The position numbers and the translations under genes are program-made. Below, piece by piece: positions 301-21,047 of a stretch of 21,476 nucleotides of DNA. Every line of letters starts with the position of its first letter. The first letter of the stretch is position 1. The stretch comes from a virus, in the IMG/VR virus record IMGVR_UViG_3300010392_000008, positions 1-21,476 of that record; one strand, given 5' to 3'. The notes under the pieces were generated by a model. It did no database searches. It was not told the origin of the DNA and worked only from the letters and a program-made list of their open reading frames with translations.

Positions 301-1657
301 ACGGTGGACACCGCTACGGCGCGTGGCCGAGCAGCAACGATTCTGGGAATCGCAGGCGCGATTTCAGGTTGTACCTGCCGGGCGCCGATCGGGCAAAACC
401 GAGATTGCCAAGCGCAAGGTATTCAAGAAATCGCTACTTGCCACCGCCTTATCGCCGAATTATTTCTTTGGTGCGCCGACCCGCGACCAAGCAAAGCGCA
501 TATTCTGGAAAGACCTGAAAGCAATGACCCATCCGGACATTATGGTGGACAAATCAGAGTCTGAACTGAACATACAACTAATTAACGGCGCGACGTTGTG
601 GGTCGTGGGCATGGACAAGCCCGAACGGATCGAGGGCACACCTTGGGACGGCGGGGTGCTGGATGAGTACGCCAACATGAAGGCGCACGCTTGGCCGGAA
701 AACGTCCGTCCGGCGCTGGAAGACAGGGGCGGGTTCTGCATATTCACTGGTGTACCGGAAGGCCGCAACCACTATTACGGCCTGTACCGGAACGCCGCGA
801 CCCGGGCAGACTGGGACCGGTTTCGGTGGAAGTCGGCCGATGTGCTGCCGGCCGCGGTCGTTGAGGCAGCCCGCCTTGACCTTGACCCGCTGACATTCGC
901 GCAGGAGTACGAAGCCGACTTTTTGAACTTCGAAGGCCGGGCATATTATCCATTCACTGAAGATTTGCATTGTGAAAATCTGCGGGATAGGTATAATGTC
1001 AATGGTGACCTGATTTTATGTTTCGATTTCAACGTAAATCCGGGCACGGCGACAATCGCGCAGGAGATGAACTTTCCGCGGCGGCAGTCGGCCGAAGCAC
1101 CCGTTGCCATTGGTGGCGCCGAACTATTTACCGGCGCACAGGCGCCAGAAGAACACGGGACGGGTATAATCGGGGAAGTACACATACCGAACAATAGCAA
1201 TACGCCCGCTGTTGTTAATAAATTCATCGCCGATTGGGGGAACCACGCAGGGCGAATTTTCGTATATGGTGATGCAACAGGTGGTTCAAGGAAAACATCA
1301 GCGACTGAAGGCAACGACTGGGATTTGGTCAAGAATGGCTTGTATAGCCATTTCGGTAGCGAGCGCATACACATGCGCGTTCCGCGATCGAATCCAAGCG
1401 AGCGTTCGCGCGTGAACGCCGTTAATACCCGCCTCAAATCAGGCAACGGCCGCATTCACATGATGGTCGACCCTGTCGAGGCGCCAATGTCGGTGAAGGA
1501 TTTCGAAGGTGTGCGATTGCTTAAAGGCGGTTCGGGCGAGATTGATAAGAAAGCCGACCCGAAACTGACCCATTTATCCGACGGGCTGGGATACTACATT
1601 TCTAAAGAATTTCCGGTGCGTAAAGTTCAAACGATCAGCGAGGCGTTGTACCTATGA
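272..1657 (+). CDS. terL: Terminase large subunit (packaging ATPase and nuclease)
   Basis: 461 residues, a normal length. The N-terminal ATPase domain has a Walker A loop GRRSGKT at residues 37-43, a Walker B ending VLDE with acidic residues D131 and E132, and a coupling motif FTGVPEG near 158-164. The C-terminal RNase H-like nuclease domain shows its acidic residues in the expected order: D252 in CFDFN, D334 in VYGDATGG and D437 in HLSDGLGYY. The protein powers DNA entry into the prohead through the portal and cuts the concatemer at the end of packaging. The ATG at 272 lies inside the small terminase gene, with AGGA about ten bases upstream. The stop overlaps the portal start as ATGA. All key catalytic residues appear intact. 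Confidence 0.96.
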   Translation: MLQRASLLTERWTPLRRVAEQQRFWESQARFQVVPAGRRSGKTEIAKRKVFKKSLLATALSPNYFFGAPTRDQAKRIFWKDLKAMTHPDIMVDKSESELNIQLINGATLWVVGMDKPERIEGTPWDGGVLDEYANMKAHAWPENVRPALEDRGGFCIFTGVPEGRNHYYGLYRNAATRADWDRFRWKSADVLPAAVVEAARLDLDPLTFAQEYEADFLNFEGRAYYPFTEDLHCENLRDRYNVNGDLILCFDFNVNPGTATIAQEMNFPRRQSAEAPVAIGGAELFTGAQAPEEHGTGIIGEVHIPNNSNTPAVVNKFIADWGNHAGRIFVYGDATGGSRKTSATEGNDWDLVKNGLYSHFGSERIHMRVPRSNPSERSRVNAVNTRLKSGNGRIHMMVDPVEAPMSVKDFEGVRLLKGGSGEIDKKADPKLTHLSDGLGYYISKEFPVRKVQTISEALYL

Positions 1658-3363
1658 GTCACAATGTACACAGCGGCGGTCCGGGTCACCGGGCGAGCAG
1701 CAACACGACGGCATCCAGCGTTTCAGGCAGCGAGCAGAACCCCGTCGCAATTCCGACGCACGCGTACCACGTTATGTCGCACAATTGGTCTGTTGTCGAC
1801 ACATTATGGGGGGGCACCGATAGCATGCGCGGCGCCGGCCGCCGTTTCCTGCCTCAAATGCCCGACGAACCGGAAGCCGCGTACCGCGCACGGTTACATC
1901 AGTCGGTATTGACCAACGTGTACAAGGACACGATCGAAAAGCTTGTATCCAAGCCACTGAAACAGCCGATTACCCTGAAAGACGACGTCCCGGAAGACAT
2001 TCAGCTGTTCCGCGGCAACATCGACGGCCAAGCCACTGACATTGACGTGTTCACGCGGCAGGTAGGCGAAGCAGCGTTGAACCATGGGCTGACACACATT
2101 CTTGTTGACTATCCGCAGGCCGACCCCGAAACGTCGGTGCTGGAAGAGAGGCAAGAAGACATCCGGCCGTACGCCATTCACTATGACGCCACGCAGGTTA
2201 TCGGCTGGAAATCCGAAGTCCGTAACGGGCGCCGTTCCCTGACACAAGTCCGCATTCTGGAGAAAACCTACAGCGACGTCGGCGAATTCGAACAAGTGCT
2301 GGTACACCGCATTCGTGTACTTGAGCCCGGTTTTTATCGCACGTACGAACTGCGGGAAGTCGGCAACGGGCAAAGCGATTGGAAACTGACCGAAAGCCAC
2401 GAAGTCGTCGCGAATGGCCAAGTGCTTGATTTTATTCCGTGGATTACGATCTATTCGAACAAAGAAAACTTTATGATTGCGCAACCGGCAATGATGGACG
2501 TTGCCCACTTGAACATTACGCACTGGCAGTCGGACAGCGACCAGCGCAACATTTTACACGTGGCCCGGGTGCCGATACTGTTCGGTTCGGGATTGGGTGA
2601 CGAAGACGCTGTTGTTAAACTGTCCATTGGCGCCACGACCTTTATCAAAGGGCAGATTTCCAGCGACCTGAAGTACGTTGAAACGTCGGGGAAGGGCATC
2701 GAGGCAGGGCAAAAGGACCTTGAAACGCTGGTTGAGCGTATGTCGTCACTGGGCTTGAACATGCTGGTACGCAAGCAGCCGACAGGCCGGGCAACGGCCA
2801 CAGCGCGCACGCTTGACCAGTCCGAAGCCGACAGCCCGTTGTCGATGTTCGCCCGGGAGCTGGAAAGCGGTCTGGAAACCATGCTGGATTGGTTCGCCGT
2901 ATTCATGGGCAAGGGCCCGGACAACGGCGGCAGCGTGGAATTGTTCAAAGATTTCAGCATTACCATGCGCGATTCGGAAGACATCAAAGAGCTGGGCCAA
3001 ATGCGCGCACGTGGCGACATTAGCCAAATCACATACTGGGAAGAGCTGAAACGCCGCAACCTGCTGTCGGACGACTTCGACGCAGAAACCGAAATTGATT
3101 TGCTTGATCTCGAGTCGCCCGGAATGGATCGCCCGGGCATAACCGAAGCTGAACTTGAACAGGGTAACGCGCCCGGCGACGAAACAGGACCGGCGGACGG
3201 GCACATTCATGTGTTGCAAGCTAACGGTTGGACGAATATAGTAGGTGGACATAAACACAAATGGGAAGTGACCGGTAAGGAAACTTCCGAAGCTGACGGC
3301 CACCGGCACGCGTTGGGCGAAACGGGCGGCGGTGAGCAGGAAGAACGGGAAGAGCAGGAATGA
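1654..3363 (+). CDS. Portal protein (DUF4055-type) with His-rich C-terminal tail
   Basis: 569 residues, directly after the large terminase with an ATGA overlap. The N-terminal part fits the DUF4055 portal pattern: an initial segment with WSVVDTLWGG, then RFLPQMP, a YRARLHQSVLTNVYKDTIEKL helix region and the start of the clip/stem fold. The portal is the dodecameric ring at the unique head vertex through which DNA enters and leaves and to which the connectors bind. The last 60 or so residues are unusual. After an acidic stretch they hold three spaced HxH pairs (H517/H519, H533/H535, H550/H552), two in a DGHxH context and one as GGHKHKW, and end in Glu-rich sequence. This looks like a metal-binding or disordered appendix, which is inference. 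The first 30 or so residues are Ser/Gly/His-rich and probably flexible. Confidence 0.9.
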   Translation: MSHNVHSGGPGHRASSNTTASSVSGSEQNPVAIPTHAYHVMSHNWSVVDTLWGGTDSMRGAGRRFLPQMPDEPEAAYRARLHQSVLTNVYKDTIEKLVSKPLKQPITLKDDVPEDIQLFRGNIDGQATDIDVFTRQVGEAALNHGLTHILVDYPQADPETSVLEERQEDIRPYAIHYDATQVIGWKSEVRNGRRSLTQVRILEKTYSDVGEFEQVLVHRIRVLEPGFYRTYELREVGNGQSDWKLTESHEVVANGQVLDFIPWITIYSNKENFMIAQPAMMDVAHLNITHWQSDSDQRNILHVARVPILFGSGLGDEDAVVKLSIGATTFIKGQISSDLKYVETSGKGIEAGQKDLETLVERMSSLGLNMLVRKQPTGRATATARTLDQSEADSPLSMFARELESGLETMLDWFAVFMGKGPDNGGSVELFKDFSITMRDSEDIKELGQMRARGDISQITYWEELKRRNLLSDDFDAETEIDLLDLESPGMDRPGITEAELEQGNAPGDETGPADGHIHVLQANGWTNIVGGHKHKWEVTGKETSEADGHRHALGETGGGEQEEREEQE

Positions 3364-3497
3364 TCGTAAAACGCGGTAACCAGTTCTGTTTGATATCGAA
3401 AAGGGCCAAGCGGAACCTTGGGTGCTTCGATACCAAGGCCGGCGCGATCAAACGCGAACGGCAGGTGCAGTTTTTCAAGCGTAAAGGTAAAAAGTGA
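3360..3497 (+). CDS. Small basic protein, 45 residues
   Basis: A short gene starting with ATG at 3360, overlapping the portal stop as ATGA, and ending at TGA 3495-3497, where the next gene begins on an overlapping GTG. Its 45-residue product is strongly basic (KRAKRNLG, then AIKRERQVQFFKRKGKK at the end). Small proteins ending in a KRERQVQFFK-like helix occur beside terminase and portal genes in many phages; this is from memory of the pattern and has no assigned function. Coupling on both sides, normal codon use and the recognisable C-terminal motif support a real gene. Nucleic-acid binding would fit the charge but is not shown. Confidence 0.75.
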   Translation: MIVKRGNQFCLISKRAKRNLGCFDTKAGAIKRERQVQFFKRKGKK

Positions 3498-4102
3498 ACC
3501 TTGTTATTATTTGCACGCCGGGAAACACCGGCAGTAGTTTGTTGACAGCAGCATTTACTGCACACGGTTTCGCTGGCGGCGGCAAAGGGCACCGTTCAAG
3601 CAAGTACGCAACGCACGAAAACAAGACGATCAACACTATATCCAAGCGATACATCAAGGAAAACGGCGGTTCACCGTGGGCGATCGGCGGCAACTTCACC
3701 GTCAGCAACGACTGGCCGAAGAGATTTAAAGACGCGCTGCGCGGCGAAGGCTTATCGAACGAGAATAACGTTGTAATAAAGGGGTTCAGTTTTCTGTGGT
3801 TAAAGGATAAAATGCCGCCAGCATACTGGATTTTTGCACGGCGGAATCAGCAGCGCACAGTTGAATCTATGCTTGAACGGTTGTCGCAAAACTATTCAGT
3901 CGGAAAGGACACGGTCGAGGGCCTTGTTGGTGACTATTTCACTGCCGCCGAAGATTTGTGCGACTATGTGGTGGATATGGACGCTTTTGTTGCTGGTGAC
4001 GCTCAATGCGTACCGGAAATAATGAGTAAATGCGACATTGTGTACGATCGTGCTAGAATGGCTAGTGTGATACGCAAAGACTTGTGGCGTGGGGGTAAAT
4101 AA
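3494..4102 (+). CDS. Sulfotransferase-like P-loop protein
   Basis: 202 residues from a GTG that overlaps the previous stop (GTGA). The N terminus is a beta strand followed by a loop, LVIICTPGNTGSSLL (residues 3-17), which resembles the phosphosulfate-binding loop of PAPS-dependent sulfotransferases. Further on, KGFSFLW (96-102) and YWIFARRNQQRTVESML (111-127) match the strand, Arg and Ser layout of the 3'-phosphate-binding segment. Such enzymes transfer sulfate from PAPS to sugars or other acceptors. At 202 residues it is shorter than most cellular sulfotransferases but typical of phage versions. It sits between portal and minor head genes, where it has no obvious assembly role, so it may be cargo that modifies a virion or host molecule. 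A kinase-like P-loop protein is the main alternative. Confidence 0.6.
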   Translation: MNLVIICTPGNTGSSLLTAAFTAHGFAGGGKGHRSSKYATHENKTINTISKRYIKENGGSPWAIGGNFTVSNDWPKRFKDALRGEGLSNENNVVIKGFSFLWLKDKMPPAYWIFARRNQQRTVESMLERLSQNYSVGKDTVEGLVGDYFTAAEDLCDYVVDMDAFVAGDAQCVPEIMSKCDIVYDRARMASVIRKDLWRGGK

Positions 4103-4434
4103 TGGCCAAATCAGCGGCTGAAGAAACACAAGACGATTTCATTGCACAGGACGTGACACTGGCCCGGGTGGATGCGGGCTTGCAGAAACGGATTGACGAC
4201 AGATTGGACCAACTTGGGCGGGACCTCAAGCGTTTGACATTGGATGTCGATGTGGCAGGGACGCCACGCAGGGACGCACAAATACGCCGCATGAACAAGC
4301 TGAACAAGGGCAGCCGGGAGCTTATCCGCGTTGCCTACTCCGACATCAACCGACTGACCAAAGACGTGCTTCAAGACGTGGCCAAGGCAACGTCAATGGA
4401 AGTCGCAACGGCATTGGAAGAAAATATACCGTGA
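4102..4434 (+). CDS. Probable N-terminal piece of minor head protein (Mu gpF-like)
   Basis: 110 residues, almost all predicted helix, starting on ATG at 4102 in a TAATG overlap with the previous gene. The layout (ARVDAGLQKRIDDRLDQL, then RMNKLNKGSRELIRVAYSDI, then a VLQDVAKATSMEVATAL helix) resembles the helical N-terminal region that normally precedes the Mu gpF domain in large minor head proteins. Here it ends at TGA 4432-4434, and the gpF domain is encoded separately from 4620. The protein probably binds the portal or the inner prohead, as minor head proteins do. The assignment to this family is inference from helix pattern and position; it could also be an independent small structural protein. 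Confidence 0.6.
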   Translation: MAKSAAEETQDDFIAQDVTLARVDAGLQKRIDDRLDQLGRDLKRLTLDVDVAGTPRRDAQIRRMNKLNKGSRELIRVAYSDINRLTKDVLQDVAKATSMEVATALEENIP

Positions 4435-4610
4435 CACAAGACGAAATCGACACCGCACTTGCCGAGTTGCCCATGGATCAATACCTGCGAACCGTGGCCG
4501 TATCGGCACAGCAACGCGCCAAGGCATTGAAAGGCAAGACTGCCCGTGCATCCTTCCTGTACGACATCGCGGCGACCGCTGGCCGGTACCTTCGCGTATT
4601 GCGCGGATAA
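4431..4610 (+). CDS. Small unknown protein between minor head pieces
   Basis: A 59-residue ORF starting with GTG at 4431, overlapping the preceding stop as GTGA, and ending at TAA 4608-4610. I do not recognise it. The product is mostly Ala/Leu/Arg-rich helix, with a basic middle (RAKALKGKTARAS) and end (YLRVLRG). Codon use matches its neighbours. Its frame is the same as that of the gpF-domain ORF starting at 4620; only the TAA and three codons separate them. It may be a real small gene that serves as translational coupler for the next ORF, which has no good Shine-Dalgarno of its own, or part of a once-continuous head gene. Confidence 0.55.
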   Translation: MTQDEIDTALAELPMDQYLRTVAVSAQQRAKALKGKTARASFLYDIAATAGRYLRVLRG

Positions 4611-4619
4611 TTCCCGTCA

Positions 4620-5906
4620 ATGGCCAAGGACATCCAGTTTAATGGCAAAGAGCTTGACGCCAATACGACGAACGCGATTGCGGGCAACGTATTAGTCGAG
4701 GGACAGCGGCCGATTACGTGGTGGCGCCAGCAAGGCACCGACCTTCACAACAAATTCATGCGCGAAATGCGCACAAGCCTTGAAAACGGGGAATCGACGG
4801 CGCAGGCCGCGACCCGCATTGCCGGCGGTACCATCAAGGGCGTTGAAGTTCCGGGGATCATGAATACCGCGAAAAATAACGCCAATACGCTTGCGCGGAC
4901 CGCAATCAACAAGGTAACCAACGAAGCCCGCATACAATCGTTTGAGGCGAACGCCGACGTTGTCAAGGCAATGAAGCAGATCAGCACACTTGACAACAGA
5001 ACAAGTCAGATTTGCATTGCGTACGACGGCCAAGTGTGGGAAAACGCACCCGGCAATAAACCGGTTCCGCCGTCAACCCTACCATTCAACGGGGGACCGC
5101 CGCGGCACTTCAACTGCCGGTCAACGCTGGTACCCGTACTGAAGAGCTGGGAAGAGTTGGGCATACCGGCCGACGAACTGTCAGCCAGCACCCGGGCGAG
5201 CATGGACGGGCAGGTACCGGACGACACCACGTTTGACGACTTCCTGAAGAGTAAAGGCACGGCATTTCAAGATGATATCCTTGGCCCGACAAAGGCGAAA
5301 CTGTGGCGCGCAGGCAAGATCACCTTGCAGCAATTGGTTAATTTCCGCGGTGACCCGTTGACAACCGAGCAGTTATTGAAGGTTGCAAAGAAGAAACGCC
5401 CAGTGGCCAAGCCGAAGCCGAAGCCCGCGGCCAAGCCGGCAGCCAAGCCGAAGCCGAAACCAGCGCCGAAGGAAGCACCGCGGGGGCCGTATCAAAAAGC
5501 GGGTGACCTGTTTATAGCGAACGAATGGCACCGTACATCATGGAACAATGCGCCTGATTACGTGCGCGACGCCTTGGACGACGTGCCGGTATTGACGGGC
5601 GTTACGAAGCAGGGCAAGGGCGCGTTTTATAACCCAAAAACGTATTCCGACGCCGACCATGCGTCAATCAATATGTCGAAGCAGCATACGTTCGATCGGA
5701 AACTGTCGCAAGGCACTTGGCGGCATGAATACGGTCACCACCTTGACTATACGTACGCCAGACGCCTACCAGAAAAGAAATTTCTTGACTCCAAGCGTCA
5801 GATTTCGTGGTCAGCGCCCATGCGCGACCTATTCAAGTCCGACTTGGATTCGGTACTGGCCAAGGCCGGCAAGACGCGCCCGACGCGGGTTAAACAATTG
5901 GACTAA
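4620..5906 (+). CDS. Minor head protein: Mu gpF domain plus first half of a metallopeptidase domain
   Basis: 428 residues. Residues about 30-180 are a Mu gpF/SPP1 gp7-like head morphogenesis domain: ITWWRQQ, the LARTAINKVTNEAR helix, then TLDNRTSQIC (D125, R127, C132), AYDGQVW and the closing PPRHFNCRSTLVP (H163, C166, R167). Residues about 220-252 hold the usual extension with GDPLTTEQLL. A Lys/Pro/Ala linker (258-285) leads to a second domain containing HEYGH at 369-373, a zinc HExxH motif. This domain stops early at TAA 5904-5906 and its apparent remainder continues in the same frame downstream. Minor head proteins are present in a few copies near the portal and may be injected with DNA, so a protease domain could act in the head or the host. 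The start ATG has no clear ribosome site; coupling to the ORF ending at 4610 is likely. Confidence 0.88.
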   Translation: MAKDIQFNGKELDANTTNAIAGNVLVEGQRPITWWRQQGTDLHNKFMREMRTSLENGESTAQAATRIAGGTIKGVEVPGIMNTAKNNANTLARTAINKVTNEARIQSFEANADVVKAMKQISTLDNRTSQICIAYDGQVWENAPGNKPVPPSTLPFNGGPPRHFNCRSTLVPVLKSWEELGIPADELSASTRASMDGQVPDDTTFDDFLKSKGTAFQDDILGPTKAKLWRAGKITLQQLVNFRGDPLTTEQLLKVAKKKRPVAKPKPKPAAKPAAKPKPKPAPKEAPRGPYQKAGDLFIANEWHRTSWNNAPDYVRDALDDVPVLTGVTKQGKGAFYNPKTYSDADHASINMSKQHTFDRKLSQGTWRHEYGHHLDYTYARRLPEKKFLDSKRQISWSAPMRDLFKSDLDSVLAKAGKTRPTRVKQLD

Positions 5907-5930
5907 GCGGCCGCTATATTTGATGACCAC

Positions 5931-6401
5931 TTGAAAAAGACGATGGACGGCGGCACAGACTATCTGGACAAGCAGTTTAAGAAGCGCGGCACAAGCTATG
6001 CGGAAATGCGCGCTATTCACCGAAATAACATGGATCAATCGGTGGACGCGCCGAACGACGCCATTATGCGCAACAAGATGGCACACTTATTGACGGCCAT
6101 GGACACCCAGAACGTGAATTATTACATTATTAACGTATGGGAAGGACAACAGTTTTATCATTCGGGGATTAATGGTAAGATACTAGACTATTATGGAAGT
6201 TTGACGAAAAATAAGGTTGGCCAAGGGCATTCGACCGCGTATTATTCGGAGGGCCCGCAGTGGCAATCTACAGAAATGTTCGCGAACGCTGTTACCATGC
6301 TGGGCGACGAACCCGGTTGGAGCAAAGTAGTTCGCAACCTTGGGCACCATGAATTTTACGATGGTGTGGAAAAACTACTTAAAAACAAGGGTGTACAATG
6401 A
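5931..6401 (+). CDS. Second half of the metallopeptidase domain, separated by an in-frame stop
   Basis: 156 residues if begun at TTG 5931, with an ATG option at 5943; neither has a Shine-Dalgarno. The frame is identical to the preceding ORF and is open without a break right after its TAA (5904-5906). The content looks like the C-terminal part of an HExxH metallopeptidase: ILDYYGSL (with D86), GQGHSTAYY (G99, H100), then STEMFAN with E115 in the place of the third zinc ligand, and a closing helix. HExxH lies in the upstream ORF and the third-ligand Glu here, so neither ORF alone holds a full active site. Possible explanations are a nonsense mutation, sequencing error, stop readthrough or a two-chain enzyme. 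The family reading is from motif order, not a search. Confidence 0.65.
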   Translation: MKKTMDGGTDYLDKQFKKRGTSYAEMRAIHRNNMDQSVDAPNDAIMRNKMAHLLTAMDTQNVNYYIINVWEGQQFYHSGINGKILDYYGSLTKNKVGQGHSTAYYSEGPQWQSTEMFANAVTMLGDEPGWSKVVRNLGHHEFYDGVEKLLKNKGVQ

Positions 6402-6574
6402 GCAAAGAACTAAATATTGCAGTACAGGATTACGTTGCAGCGTTTGACGACTACCCGACCATTATCGGCATGACCGACGAAACAGCCGTGCGCGCGATCA
6501 ATCAAGCTGTCAGGGACAAGCAGCCTATCGAAGAACCGACCGACCCGAACGGCGAAGTTGACATATACGTATGA
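6398..6574 (+). CDS. Small acidic unknown protein
   Basis: 58 residues, starting on ATG 6398, which overlaps the previous stop as ATGA. I do not recognise it. A helical first part (ELNIAVQDYVAAFDDY) is followed by MTDETAVRAINQAVRDKQ and a Pro/Asp/Glu-rich tail. It is acidic overall, with no Cys and no membrane segment. Codon use is like the neighbours, and the tight coupling supports a real gene. It lies between the minor head genes and the scaffold gene, so a role in head assembly is possible but not shown. Confidence 0.6.
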   Translation: MSKELNIAVQDYVAAFDDYPTIIGMTDETAVRAINQAVRDKQPIEEPTDPNGEVDIYV

Positions 6575-11826: not shown

Positions 11827-12578
11827 TGTCGAAAGCCATTCCTAACCCTCGCAGCCTGTACTATCGTGAACCGAATTTATTGATACCGGGCAAGAAGCCT
11901 GTTGGGCCGGTTAAGATTGATTGGGATCATCCTACAACTAGAGATTTGAAGATTTTACATTATGTGCAAGGTCTACAGGCCAGAGATCTAGTGAAGGATA
12001 TATTCCCAAAAGACTATGATGGTACTTGGACTGTAGATAGTGAAGGGTACAGTCTTACTGTGTCTGGCAATGGAGGCGGACTCGAATATGCCGATCTTGA
12101 AGATGCTCGGTTAGGAGGTACAGCGTTTACTATATGGTGGAGAGGGATTCCAACAGAAACAAATAACAATGATGCGTTCATAGGCAGGCGGAACAGCTTT
12201 AGCGATGGATACTGGGCAGTAGCTACAAGTGCATCACAAACGGTAAAGTTTTTTTGTCATAATGGAAGTCCAAGCGATGTCACTTTTGGTGGTTTAAGCG
12301 CATACAGTCTGAATGAAAAACTATCTCTATATATTACATGTGATGGTGTACAGGAATTTAAGCGAATTATAAACTATACCAAGTCAACAGATACAAATTC
12401 TGGCGCGATTCCATCGGGTAATAATACGCATGATTTCAATATAAATACACTCCAGTATGGCGGCAATAACGAACTGAATGGAGTTAATTATATAGCTGGA
12501 ATATGGCACAGAGAGCTATCAGATGCCGAATGTTATTCATTAACTGATGATCCCTATCAGTTCATAATCCCAGCATGA
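11826..12578 (+). CDS. LamG/concanavalin A-like lectin domain protein
   Basis: 250 residues. The N-terminal part contains KIDWDHPTTRDLKILHYVQG, then a jelly-roll lectin domain with FTIWWRGIP, FIGRRNSFSDGYW, KFFCHNG and a closing IAGIWHRELSDAECYSLTDD. That last segment is the typical end of LamG-type domains (W-x-R-x-LS-x-x-E). Such domains bind sugars or form fibre tips. The gene is visibly AT-richer than its neighbours: hand counts give 24 of 60 G+C at 12001-12060 and again at 12361-12420, against 40 of 60 at 18001-18060. That suggests separate acquisition, as is common for host-range genes. It starts in a TAATG overlap and its stop overlaps the repeat-protein gene. Confidence 0.78.
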   Translation: MSKAIPNPRSLYYREPNLLIPGKKPVGPVKIDWDHPTTRDLKILHYVQGLQARDLVKDIFPKDYDGTWTVDSEGYSLTVSGNGGGLEYADLEDARLGGTAFTIWWRGIPTETNNNDAFIGRRNSFSDGYWAVATSASQTVKFFCHNGSPSDVTFGGLSAYSLNEKLSLYITCDGVQEFKRIINYTKSTDTNSGAIPSGNNTHDFNINTLQYGGNNELNGVNYIAGIWHRELSDAECYSLTDDPYQFIIPA

Positions 12579-13609
12579 GAAGAATTCAGCCGCCTTTTTT
12601 ATGGGCGCCCGAAGCCGCGCCGGGGTTTATTGGCGCCGCCCTTGCGGGGGTTATTCTGTTCGCCGGGGCACAGCCGACACTAAATATCGGCGAGAATAAT
12701 AACGCTCAGTCAAGCAATATTATATTCAACGGCCAACAGCCGGCCGCACAGGTCGGCCAGACGGCACAGGCTACGGCCGGAACAATACTGTACAACGGCC
12801 AGCAACCGGCCGCACAGGTCGGCCAGACGGCACAGGCTACGGCCGGAACAATACTGTACAACGGCCAGCAGCCGGCACTACAGAAAGGCGTGGCAGCGGC
12901 CGCTACGGCCGGCGCCATCCTGTACAACGGGCAGCAACCCACACTTGTAACGGCACAACAATTCGTCGAGCAGGCGGCTTCCGGAACAATACTGTACAAC
13001 GGCCAACAGCCGGCGGCACAGGTCGGCCAGACGGCACAGGCGACGTCGGGAGCCATTATACTAAATGGCCAACAGCCGGCGGCACAGGTCGGCCAGACGG
13101 TTCAAGCAACATCAAGCAATATTATATTCAACGGGCAGCAACCGCTCTTTGTTTCTGGTGCAGCATTCGTCGAGCAGGCGACGTCGGGAACCATCCTGTA
13201 CAACGGGCAGCAACCATCCGTTCAAACTGGCGTAATAGATCAAGCGACGGCCGGCACCGTCATATATAATGGCCAGCAACCCGCCACGCAGAGCGGCTAC
13301 GCCGCGCAGGCAACGGCCGGCACCATCCTGTTCAACGGCCAGCAACCCGGTATTGTATCTGGTGGCGTTACGTTTATCGGAATCCCCGAATCCGGCACAA
13401 TATTATTCGACGGAAAAACACCCGCCGCAGCGGTAGGATATTCCGATACCGCCCAATTCTCGGAAATAGTGTATAATGGTAACCAGCCGACCATTTTTCG
13501 GCGTGTGACAGTACTTCCAGGGCAACTGGTTGTAGCGTTAATTGACGATGGTTTGACAGTATCATTGGGCGCAGAAAATTTAACTGTAACACTTATTGAG
13601 GTAATATAA
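12575..13609 (+). CDS. Tandem-repeat virion protein (22-residue units)
   Basis: 344 residues, starting on ATG 12575 in an ATGA overlap. Thirteen copies of a unit around xILYNGQQPxxQxGxxAQATAG fill residues about 27-305. Ten carry exact NGQQP (Asn at 52, 74, 96, 118, 142, 164, 186, 210, 232, 254), and three are degenerate (AGAQP at 30, DGKTP at 279, NGNQP at 301). Spacing is 22 residues, except 24 for two units that contain FVEQA, and 25 for one. The C-terminal 40 residues are a different beta segment (QLVVALIDDGLTVSL). Repeats with a G-x-x-P core occur in other phage structural proteins, but I cannot name this family. A rod or fibre with beta-solenoid or beta-sandwich repeats is inferred. No signal peptide is evident. 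Confidence 0.75.
   Translation: MRRIQPPFLWAPEAAPGFIGAALAGVILFAGAQPTLNIGENNNAQSSNIIFNGQQPAAQVGQTAQATAGTILYNGQQPAAQVGQTAQATAGTILYNGQQPALQKGVAAAATAGAILYNGQQPTLVTAQQFVEQAASGTILYNGQQPAAQVGQTAQATSGAIILNGQQPAAQVGQTVQATSSNIIFNGQQPLFVSGAAFVEQATSGTILYNGQQPSVQTGVIDQATAGTVIYNGQQPATQSGYAAQATAGTILFNGQQPGIVSGGVTFIGIPESGTILFDGKTPAAAVGYSDTAQFSEIVYNGNQPTIFRRVTVLPGQLVVALIDDGLTVSLGAENLTVTLIEVI
12653..13489 (+). repeat. Tandem DNA repeat, 66-base unit, within the repeat-protein gene
   Basis: Thirteen in-frame units, mostly 66 bases. Units at 12731-12796 and 12797-12862 differ at only 2 of 66 positions. Later units are more diverged but keep the ACGGCCAGCA and CAGGTCGGCCAGACGG cores. The high identity suggests recent unit duplication and possible copy-number change. 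Confidence 0.85.
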
Positions 13610-19974: not shown

Positions 19975-21047
19975 TGGCAAAAATTACAGGTACAGCAGAT
20001 AATTATCTGGATTTAATGACAGACTTCCGCGATTTCATCACGGGAGTTTCGCCGACACTGTCGTGGTTGACGGTGCGCGATACTTCGACAAGCCCGGTTG
20101 GCGCCAATTCACCGAACACGTCGGAAATGATTTTCGAGGGTGACGCAAGCAACGGCGGCAGTCCCGAACGCAAGCTGTATTTCGGGTTCAAGAGTTATGA
20201 AACACCCGCGGCGTCTATATTTGGCTTGGAACTGAGAGGGTTTACCGGGTTTGACCCGGGAAGCCCGGAGGGCAGCATAGCTTTTGAAGATCAGCCCGAC
20301 GCAAGCAACCCTGTTTATATTCCCTTGCAAAACACGACGATGACATATTGGATATGGGCCAACGAACGACGCGTTATCATGGTTATCAAAACGGGAACAG
20401 CGTATCAGTGGTTGCACGCTGGATTCCTTGATACGTTCGCCACTGAAAGCGAGTATCCATACCCGCTAATGGTCATGGGTAGTTCGCATAACCCGCTATA
20501 TGCGTTCAACAACAATTCCCTTGACTTTTCTACAGGCGCGGACCCGGCAGGAAACGCTACTGAATTCACGCCGTCGGCTTGGACGTCGTCCATGTTCCTG
20601 CGATTTGTTGACGGTCAGTGGTACCCGATAAAGAATTTCAGTGGTACATCAACGGCCGTGGCATTAACGGCGCGCGGTGTTTGGCCCTTGGTCGGTTATA
20701 CTCCGTCTAACTGGCCCGTTGATGGGCGCATACCAAACCCGCAGCGCGAATTCAGAGATAAATATTATGCCACTACAGCGGGCGGCACCACGTCGGCGTT
20801 ACTGGCGAAAACACCGGGAAGTCCGGACGATATATCACCGATGTTCCCCTTAACAATAATCTGGTCTAGCCCTTCGCAGCAAATGCTTGGTGAAATAAGC
20901 GGGTTGTTCTGGTTGAGCGGATCGGGCGGCGTTACCGCTGAAGACGAAATATTTGATACCGGCGTCAGTCCGGAACAGCGGTACCTTGTTTTTCAAAATG
21001 TTCACAGAACCGACCCGTGGACATTTATGGCGGTAAAGGACGAATAA
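19974..21047 (+). CDS. Tail protein after the tape measure
   Basis: 357 residues, start ATG 19974 in a TAATG overlap with the tape measure gene. The sequence begins NYLDLMTDFRDFITG and has GLELRGFTGFDPGSPEG, MTYWIWANERRVIMVIKTG, then FATESEYPYPLMVMGSSHNP. This YPYPL-x-x-x-G pattern with a preceding W-x-x-x-N-x-R-R-V strand occurs in a family of tail proteins located after tape measures in several phages. I know no molecular role; tail tip or baseplate is expected from position. It is Ser/Gly/Pro-rich and beta-type. The product starts like that of the next gene (DLM then F-x-TG then W). Confidence 0.72.
   Translation: MAKITGTADNYLDLMTDFRDFITGVSPTLSWLTVRDTSTSPVGANSPNTSEMIFEGDASNGGSPERKLYFGFKSYETPAASIFGLELRGFTGFDPGSPEGSIAFEDQPDASNPVYIPLQNTTMTYWIWANERRVIMVIKTGTAYQWLHAGFLDTFATESEYPYPLMVMGSSHNPLYAFNNNSLDFSTGADPAGNATEFTPSAWTSSMFLRFVDGQWYPIKNFSGTSTAVALTARGVWPLVGYTPSNWPVDGRIPNPQREFRDKYYATTAGGTTSALLAKTPGSPDDISPMFPLTIIWSSPSQQMLGEISGLFWLSGSGGVTAEDEIFDTGVSPEQRYLVFQNVHRTDPWTFMAVKDE

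What the first reader, a model, noticed from the sequence alone, without database searches (positions are those of the whole stretch)
4620..6401. Metallopeptidase domain fused to the minor head protein and interrupted by an in-frame TAA
The ORF 4620-5906 has HEYGH at residues 369-373 and ends at TAA 5904-5906. The next ORF is in the same frame, open directly after the stop, has no ribosome site at its TTG or ATG, and carries GQGHSTAYY and STEMFAN, which fit the C-terminal half and third zinc ligand of such a domain. Neither ORF holds a full active site. Either the gene is newly broken, or a UAA readthrough or two-chain enzyme exists. A protease carried in the head would be of interest.
Basis: partly seen in the sequence, partly recalled or inferred. 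Interest (0 to 1): 0.78.

Follow-up and report, generated by a model that had tools for sequence, protein, structure and literature searches.

The report
Broken phage-head peptidase, intact immunity-like partner
A phage gene that should join a head protein to a zinc-peptidase domain (folded like the enzyme part of anthrax lethal factor) is cut short by one stop codon in this contig, while dozens of related phages keep the gene whole, nearly always next to a tiny undescribed gene that looks like its immunity or inhibitor protein.

Summary
In detail: ORF 4620-5906 is a MuF/gp7-type minor head protein carrying HEYGHH, and after TAA 5904-5906 the same frame runs open to 6399 with the rest of a zincin domain. 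The stop is private to this contig: all 60 relatives aligned keep the full active-site set in one continuous ORF. So it is a nonsense mutation (or a base error), not readthrough or a two-chain enzyme. TAA is the ordinary stop here (15 of 27 genes), no start after it has a Shine-Dalgarno, and every other gene alignable to a colinear relative is intact.

An AlphaFold model of an intact relative's domain (pLDDT 93) matches the catalytic domain of anthrax lethal factor (Z 12.6), then Certhrax and PPEP-2. No Pfam, NCBIfam or PHROG model covers it, although MuF effectors and zincins in phage polyvalent proteins are known.

The new part: in about 61 of 65 loci the zincin gene is overlapped or abutted by a 56-104 aa ORF of one undescribed family, absent from all 11 zincin-less MuF loci tested and tandem in two. 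Best reading: a virion-delivered peptidase effector with its immunity or inhibitor protein. In this window the effector is broken and the partner (6398-6574) intact.

The parts
4102..4434 (+). separate gene matching the N-terminal segment of the gp7/MuF profile
   Evidence: phrog_241 profile positions 9-115, E 4.6e-5; same separate ORF in L003, L004, L006, L007 at 46-85% identity
4431..4610 (+). 59-aa gene with its own stop (TAA 4608-4610), in the same frame as 4620 but not part of the broken gene
   Evidence: 76% identical in L006 and 39% in L003, there also with its own stop
4620..5906 (+). truncated MuF-zincin gene: MuF domain (residues 46-170, nt 4755-5129), Lys/Pro/Ala linker, first half of the zincin domain (from about nt 5529)
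   Evidence: PF04233 E 8.5e-11; phrog_241 E 8.5e-76; alignment with L004, L006, L007
5724..5741 (+). HEYGHH, the HExxH zinc motif (WRHEYGH..D invariant in 60 relatives)
5904..5906 (+). premature TAA, private to this contig
   Evidence: absent in all 60 relatives aligned; sense codons at the aligned column in L004, L006, L007
5907..6398 (+). orphaned second half of the zincin domain: invariant D, GH...Y (from 6219) and E..A (from 6267)
   Evidence: 49-56% identical to L004, L006, L007 and constrained like them; no ribosome site
6398..6574 (+). 58-aa partner ORF overlapping the zincin stop (ATGA); immunity/inhibitor candidate, intact
   Evidence: one family in 52 loci by blastp; profile control; AF2 two-helix hairpin, pLDDT 87

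Best explanation
The phage family to which this contig belongs carries, as an optional C-terminal module on its MuF/gp7 minor head protein, a zinc peptidase domain of the lethal-factor fold, followed by a stop-start-overlapping small gene. I think the module is a MuF-type effector-immunity pair. The head protein is built into the virion through its MuF part (inferred from SPP1 gp7); the peptidase enters the cell with the DNA and cleaves a host protein (inferred); the small helical-hairpin protein, made from the overlapping gene, binds and silences the peptidase in the producing cell (inferred). In this contig a single in-frame TAA removes 164 residues, including the presumed third zinc ligand, so the product should be a head protein with a dead peptidase stub. 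The MuF part is whole, as is the partner gene. Shown: the private stop, continuous homologues, fold match, partner linkage. Inferred: delivery, toxicity, inhibition.
For: Continuous MuF + HEYGHH...GH..YY...TE..A ORFs in L004-L007 and L011 and in all 60 aligned relatives; 47 of 60 hit PF04233 in the same ORF. AF2 of the L006 domain, pLDDT 93; VIA-align Z 12.6, 154 residues, rmsd 3.2 to lethal factor residues 574-776, then Certhrax 9.7 and PPEP-2 9.4, against 5.8 for the next group. The partner follows the zincin in about 61 of 65 loci, with 0 hits in 1,618 frames of 11 zincin-less MuF loci, including close relatives L002 and L003. It also follows zincins fused to a portal (L073) and to DUF2213 + topoisomerase IB (L092), so it goes with the zincin, not with MuF. 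Tandem partner copies in L061 and L127. In the window the segment after the stop shows no decay (third-position excess about 1.0, relative-rate p 0.21-0.41), and every other gene alignable to the colinear relative G001 is intact. MuF toxins followed by small immunity ORFs are published (PMC5576092, PMC11699363).
Against: Nothing here shows activity, delivery or inhibition. No complex model of zincin and partner could be run. Only 4 of 12 long records carry a tyrosine integrase, so the link to temperate phages reported for MuF toxins is not established for this family. A divergent HEFGH clade (L128-L131) shows no partner. The stop could be a base error.
Confidence: 0.6

Rival explanations
1. 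The TAA is a sequencing or assembly error; the phage has a whole MuF-zincin gene like its relatives.
For: Single contig; no second copy of the region in viral contigs; the frame after the stop is perfectly kept with all active-site residues and no decay.
Against: Every other gene alignable to G001 is intact, so the contig is not error-rich. Zincin loss is real elsewhere in the group: L002 and L003, 80-82% identical in the MuF part, lack it.
Confidence: 0.25
2. The zincin is a processing enzyme (autoproteolysis or head maturation, as proposed for phage P1 DdrB), and the small partner is an assembly chaperone or a temporary inhibitor rather than an immunity protein.
For: Iyer et al. 2017 (PMC5512222) propose processing as a main role of zincins in phage polyvalent proteins. 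Some relatives are large multidomain proteins (L073 1600 aa, L092 1392 aa).
Against: Close relatives do without the domain (L002, L003), so it is not needed for assembly. Most members are only MuF + linker + zincin, with no further effector to release. Tandem partner copies and the overlapping stop-start layout look like immunity genes.
Confidence: 0.25
3. UAA readthrough or a two-chain enzyme makes the full peptidase in small amounts.
For: The downstream frame is conserved and constrained.
Against: No relative has a stop or split here (0 of 60). TAA ends 15 of 27 genes and reading through it would run into non-coding sequence elsewhere. The stop is followed by G, there is no stable RNA structure, no Shine-Dalgarno and no tRNA gene in the contig.
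Confidence: 0.04

Closest known systems
MuF polymorphic toxins (Jamet et al. 2017, PMC5576092; Bxa, PMC11699363; Apk2)
   Same: MuF minor head protein with a variable C-terminal enzyme domain, encoded near the portal, followed by a small ORF proposed or shown to be immunity
   Different: The studied ones are ADP-ribosyltransferases or (p)ppApp synthetases. Here the domain is a lethal-factor-fold zincin and the small partner family is undescribed; a tyrosine integrase was found in only 4 of 12 long records
Zincin-like MPTase domains of phage polyvalent proteins (Iyer et al. 2017, PMC5512222)
   Same: HEXXH plus a C-terminal Glu, lethal-factor-like core, and an Asp three residues after HEXXH, as described there for a phage-type clade
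   Different: The conserved His at the end of strand 2 described for that clade is not invariant here; no Pfam or NCBIfam peptidase model recognises the domain; it is mostly a simple MuF fusion with a paired small ORF, which I did not find described in the sections read
Anthrax lethal factor catalytic domain, Certhrax, PPEP (lethal-factor-like zincins)
   Same: Predicted fold: Z 12.6, 9.7 and 9.4
   Different: 16% or less identity in the structural alignment, no detectable sequence relation, phage-head context, no toxin delivery domains of those proteins

Membership tests
MuF / SPP1 gp7 minor head proteins (PF04233) | profile match above cut-off | tested here: met
   43 bits against a cut-off of 29.6; phrog_241 E 8.5e-76
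MuF / SPP1 gp7 minor head proteins (PF04233) | gene next to the portal and terminase genes | tested here: met
   terminase 272-1657, portal 1654-3363; one unrelated gene, 3494-4102, lies between
Zincin (HExxH + Glu) metallopeptidase | HExxH and a downstream Glu in one chain | tested here: not met
   not met by the window product, where the stop separates them; met by all 60 relatives
Zincin (HExxH + Glu) metallopeptidase | zincin fold | tested here: met
   for the intact relative L006: AF2 pLDDT 93, lethal factor Z 12.6
Zincin (HExxH + Glu) metallopeptidase | zinc binding and proteolysis | not testable with these tools
   needs a biochemical assay
MuF polymorphic toxin with immunity | MuF N-terminus fused to an enzyme domain | tested here: met
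   47 of 60 relatives at E <= 1e-3
MuF polymorphic toxin with immunity | small ORF directly downstream, linked to the toxin domain and not to MuF | tested here: met
   about 61 of 65 loci against 0 of 11 zincin-less loci
MuF polymorphic toxin with immunity | carried by temperate phages | tested here: inconclusive
   tyrosine integrase in 4 of 12 long records, completeness unknown
MuF polymorphic toxin with immunity | toxicity, and neutralisation by the partner | not testable with these tools
   needs expression tests
Lethal-factor-like peptidases (sequence family) | sequence profile match | tested here: inconclusive
   no Pfam or NCBIfam peptidase model at E <= 0.1 and no zincin chain in the PDB sequence search; only the fold agrees
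Programmed stop-codon readthrough gene | stop conserved at the same place in relatives | tested here: not met
   0 of 60 relatives

The most novel reading that the evidence does not exclude
A widespread, undescribed phage effector-immunity cassette: a lethal-factor-fold zinc peptidase carried on head proteins (MuF, also portal or DUF2213-topoisomerase fusions), delivered with the DNA, and always silenced by a roughly 60-residue helical-hairpin protein encoded in an overlapping gene. The window catches it with the peptidase lost first and the immunity kept.
Probability: 0.5. Interest if true: 0.65.

Novelty: new variant of a known kind. Interest (0 to 1): 0.5.

Why it matters
Phage heads are thought to carry enzymes that act in the infected cell, but few have been studied. 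A peptidase of the lethal-factor fold on the minor head protein, with its own candidate inhibitor family, gives a concrete pair to test in laboratory bacteria. The partner would be a very small natural inhibitor of this enzyme class. The order of loss seen here (peptidase stopped, partner kept) is what an effector-immunity pair predicts, though it is a single case.

Tried and rejected
Second break upstream: the TAA at 4608 and the shift between 4434 and 4620 looked like further damage, but relatives have the same separate genes. Recoded TAA: rejected, TAA ends 15 of 27 genes and the contig has no tRNA gene. Readthrough structure: RNA fold z 0.38. Other copies of the region: none in viral contigs; metagenome contigs could not be scanned. 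Isolated phages: no DNA match, no zincin-domain match for L006 or L016 by tblastn, only a weak partial match in Nodularia phages. Foldseek against PDB had no match at E <= 0.001; the fold assignment rests on VIA-align, and in that list ACE2/ACE, ERAP2 and IrrE (Z about 5) are the next, weaker zincins. BFVD: best match an uncultured Caudovirales head morphogenesis protein, E 4e-10, with no function. Partner family: no meaningful Pfam or PHROG hit; PDB hits of its profile are helical repeats and designed proteins, judged chance. Bacterial genomes: rare, 5 of 398 in one phylum sample.

Full report
What was checked. The window is a whole IMG/VR record of 21,476 bases holding a phage head and tail gene run. 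The N-terminal part is a MuF/gp7 minor head protein (PF04233 E 8.5e-11; phrog_241 E 8.5e-76). No library model covers the C-terminal part.

Relatives decide the main question. A scan of viral contigs gave 29 loci. In L004/L005, L006, L007 and the more distant L011 the gene is one continuous ORF: MuF, a low-complexity linker, then HEYGHH through TTEAFAN. A wider scan with the domain alignment gave 80 loci, plus three MAGs of Accumulibacter and Azoarcus. Of the distinct ORFs, 60 were aligned; all keep WRHEYGH..D, an Asp, GH...Y and E..A in one chain. The window is the only case with a stop between them. 47 of the 60 hit PF04233 in the same ORF; others carry the domain on a portal (L073) or on DUF2213 plus topoisomerase IB (L092).

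Nature of the stop. After the stop the window is 49-56% identical to L004, L006 and L007, with a third-position excess like theirs (about 1.0 where 0.5 would be neutral), and a relative-rate test finds no acceleration (p 0.21 and 0.41). So the stop is recent or an error. A colinear relative, G001 (26.6 kb, capsid protein 96% identical), shows that every other window gene alignable to it is intact. Readthrough is not supported: TAA ends 15 of 27 genes, there is no Shine-Dalgarno at any start after it, no RNA structure beyond chance and no tRNA gene. I cannot tell a true mutation from a base error without reads. The segment just before the stop (5375-5940) does not align at DNA level with G001 while both sides do, so this part of the gene is unusually diverged in the window, perhaps by recombination.

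The domain. An AlphaFold2 model of the intact L006 domain (293 aa, 18 sequences) has pLDDT 93 and pTM 0.92. Foldseek gave only weak PDB matches. VIA-align of its candidates puts anthrax lethal factor residues 574-776 first (Z 12.6, rmsd 3.2, 154 residues, 16% identity), then Certhrax (9.7) and PPEP-2 (9.4); the next group, ACE2 and ACE, is at 5.8 or lower. This is a shared zincin fold, not evidence of shared substrate or of any action on animals. By analogy with other zincins, I take the two His of HEYGH and the Glu of the late E..A motif as zinc ligands, and the invariant Tyr as a possible catalytic helper; these assignments are inferred.

The partner gene. Directly after the zincin stop, usually overlapping it by 4 to 20 bases, lies a small ORF. 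By blastp, 52 of these, including window 6398-6574, form one family, with a Y...FG..P motif and an AI..G..I segment. With a profile, about 61 of 65 zincin loci with room downstream have it next to the zincin on the same strand. None of 1,618 reading-frame segments in 11 zincin-less MuF loci matches it; these include L002 and L003, which are 80-82% identical to the window in the MuF part but carry an Ala-rich tail instead of the zincin. It also follows the zincins fused to a portal and to topoisomerase IB, so it tracks the zincin. L061 and L127 have two copies in tandem. Limits: the profile was built from these loci, some loci are near-duplicates, three loci have only a weak opposite-strand match and one none, and the HEFGH clade (L128-L131) shows none. 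The window's partner is predicted as a two-helix hairpin with a loose tail (pLDDT 87) and belongs to no Pfam or PHROG family.

How it most likely works. Published MuF toxins combine a MuF head domain with an enzyme and a small downstream immunity ORF (89% of cases in PMC5576092), and for Bxa and Apk2 non-enzymatic immunity proteins are shown (PMC11699363). Zincins are the commonest enzyme in phage polyvalent proteins and are thought to act by processing or as effectors (PMC5512222). The loci here fit an effector-immunity pair best: the domain is optional, strictly paired, overlapping in layout, and sometimes has a duplicated partner. Processing during assembly is the main rival. In the window the peptidase is cut before its presumed third ligand, the MuF part is whole, and the partner remains, as expected if the toxic half is lost first; this is one case only.

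Novelty. MuF effectors and phage zincins are known kinds. This zincin group and its partner family are not in the libraries searched, and I did not find the pair described in the papers read. I therefore call it a new variant of a known kind. The premature stop itself is ordinary.

Noticed in passing
window 4102-4434 and 4620 onward: The gp7/MuF protein is split in this phage group: its N-terminal profile segment (phrog_241 9-115) is a separate gene, with a 59-aa gene between (a different gene in L007). Most isolated phages fetched have one ORF of about 360 codons.
   Followed up: partly
window 3494-4102: 202-aa gene between portal and gp7 whose relative in G001 (48% identical) sits about 13 kb away at 20072-20683, between two tail genes: a gene that moved or was gained twice.
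   Followed up: no
window 5375-5940: Linker and first half of the zincin do not align at DNA level with G001 although both sides do (77-78% identity): a fast or recombined block ending just after the stop.
   Followed up: partly
L002 480-1700, L003 2995-4125: The closest MuF relatives carry a long Ala/Lys-rich, probably helical tail in place of the zincin and its partner.
   Followed up: no
L023 2724-6128: Intein/Hint element inserted inside the MuF domain of a MuF-zincin protein.
   Followed up: no
L092 65-4240 and L073 2-4801: Zincin-partner cassettes on a DUF2213 + topoisomerase IB protein and on a portal protein.
   Followed up: partly
L011 4611-7244: Between MuF and zincin there is a segment that by eye resembles an ADP-ribosyltransferase (YGRGVYLT); no Pfam hit at 1e-3.
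   Followed up: no
L009 1902 onward: A MuF relative with a different C-terminus: by eye a P-loop (GGRGGSGKT) kinase-like segment, then a HEAGH zincin-like motif.
   Followed up: no
window 12575-13609: 344-aa protein made of repeats of about 26 residues (GQQPAAQVGQTAQATAGTILYN); the G001 relative is longer (783 aa).
   Followed up: no
L061 4865-5386 and L127 1058-1582: Two tandem copies of the small partner gene after one zincin.
   Followed up: partly
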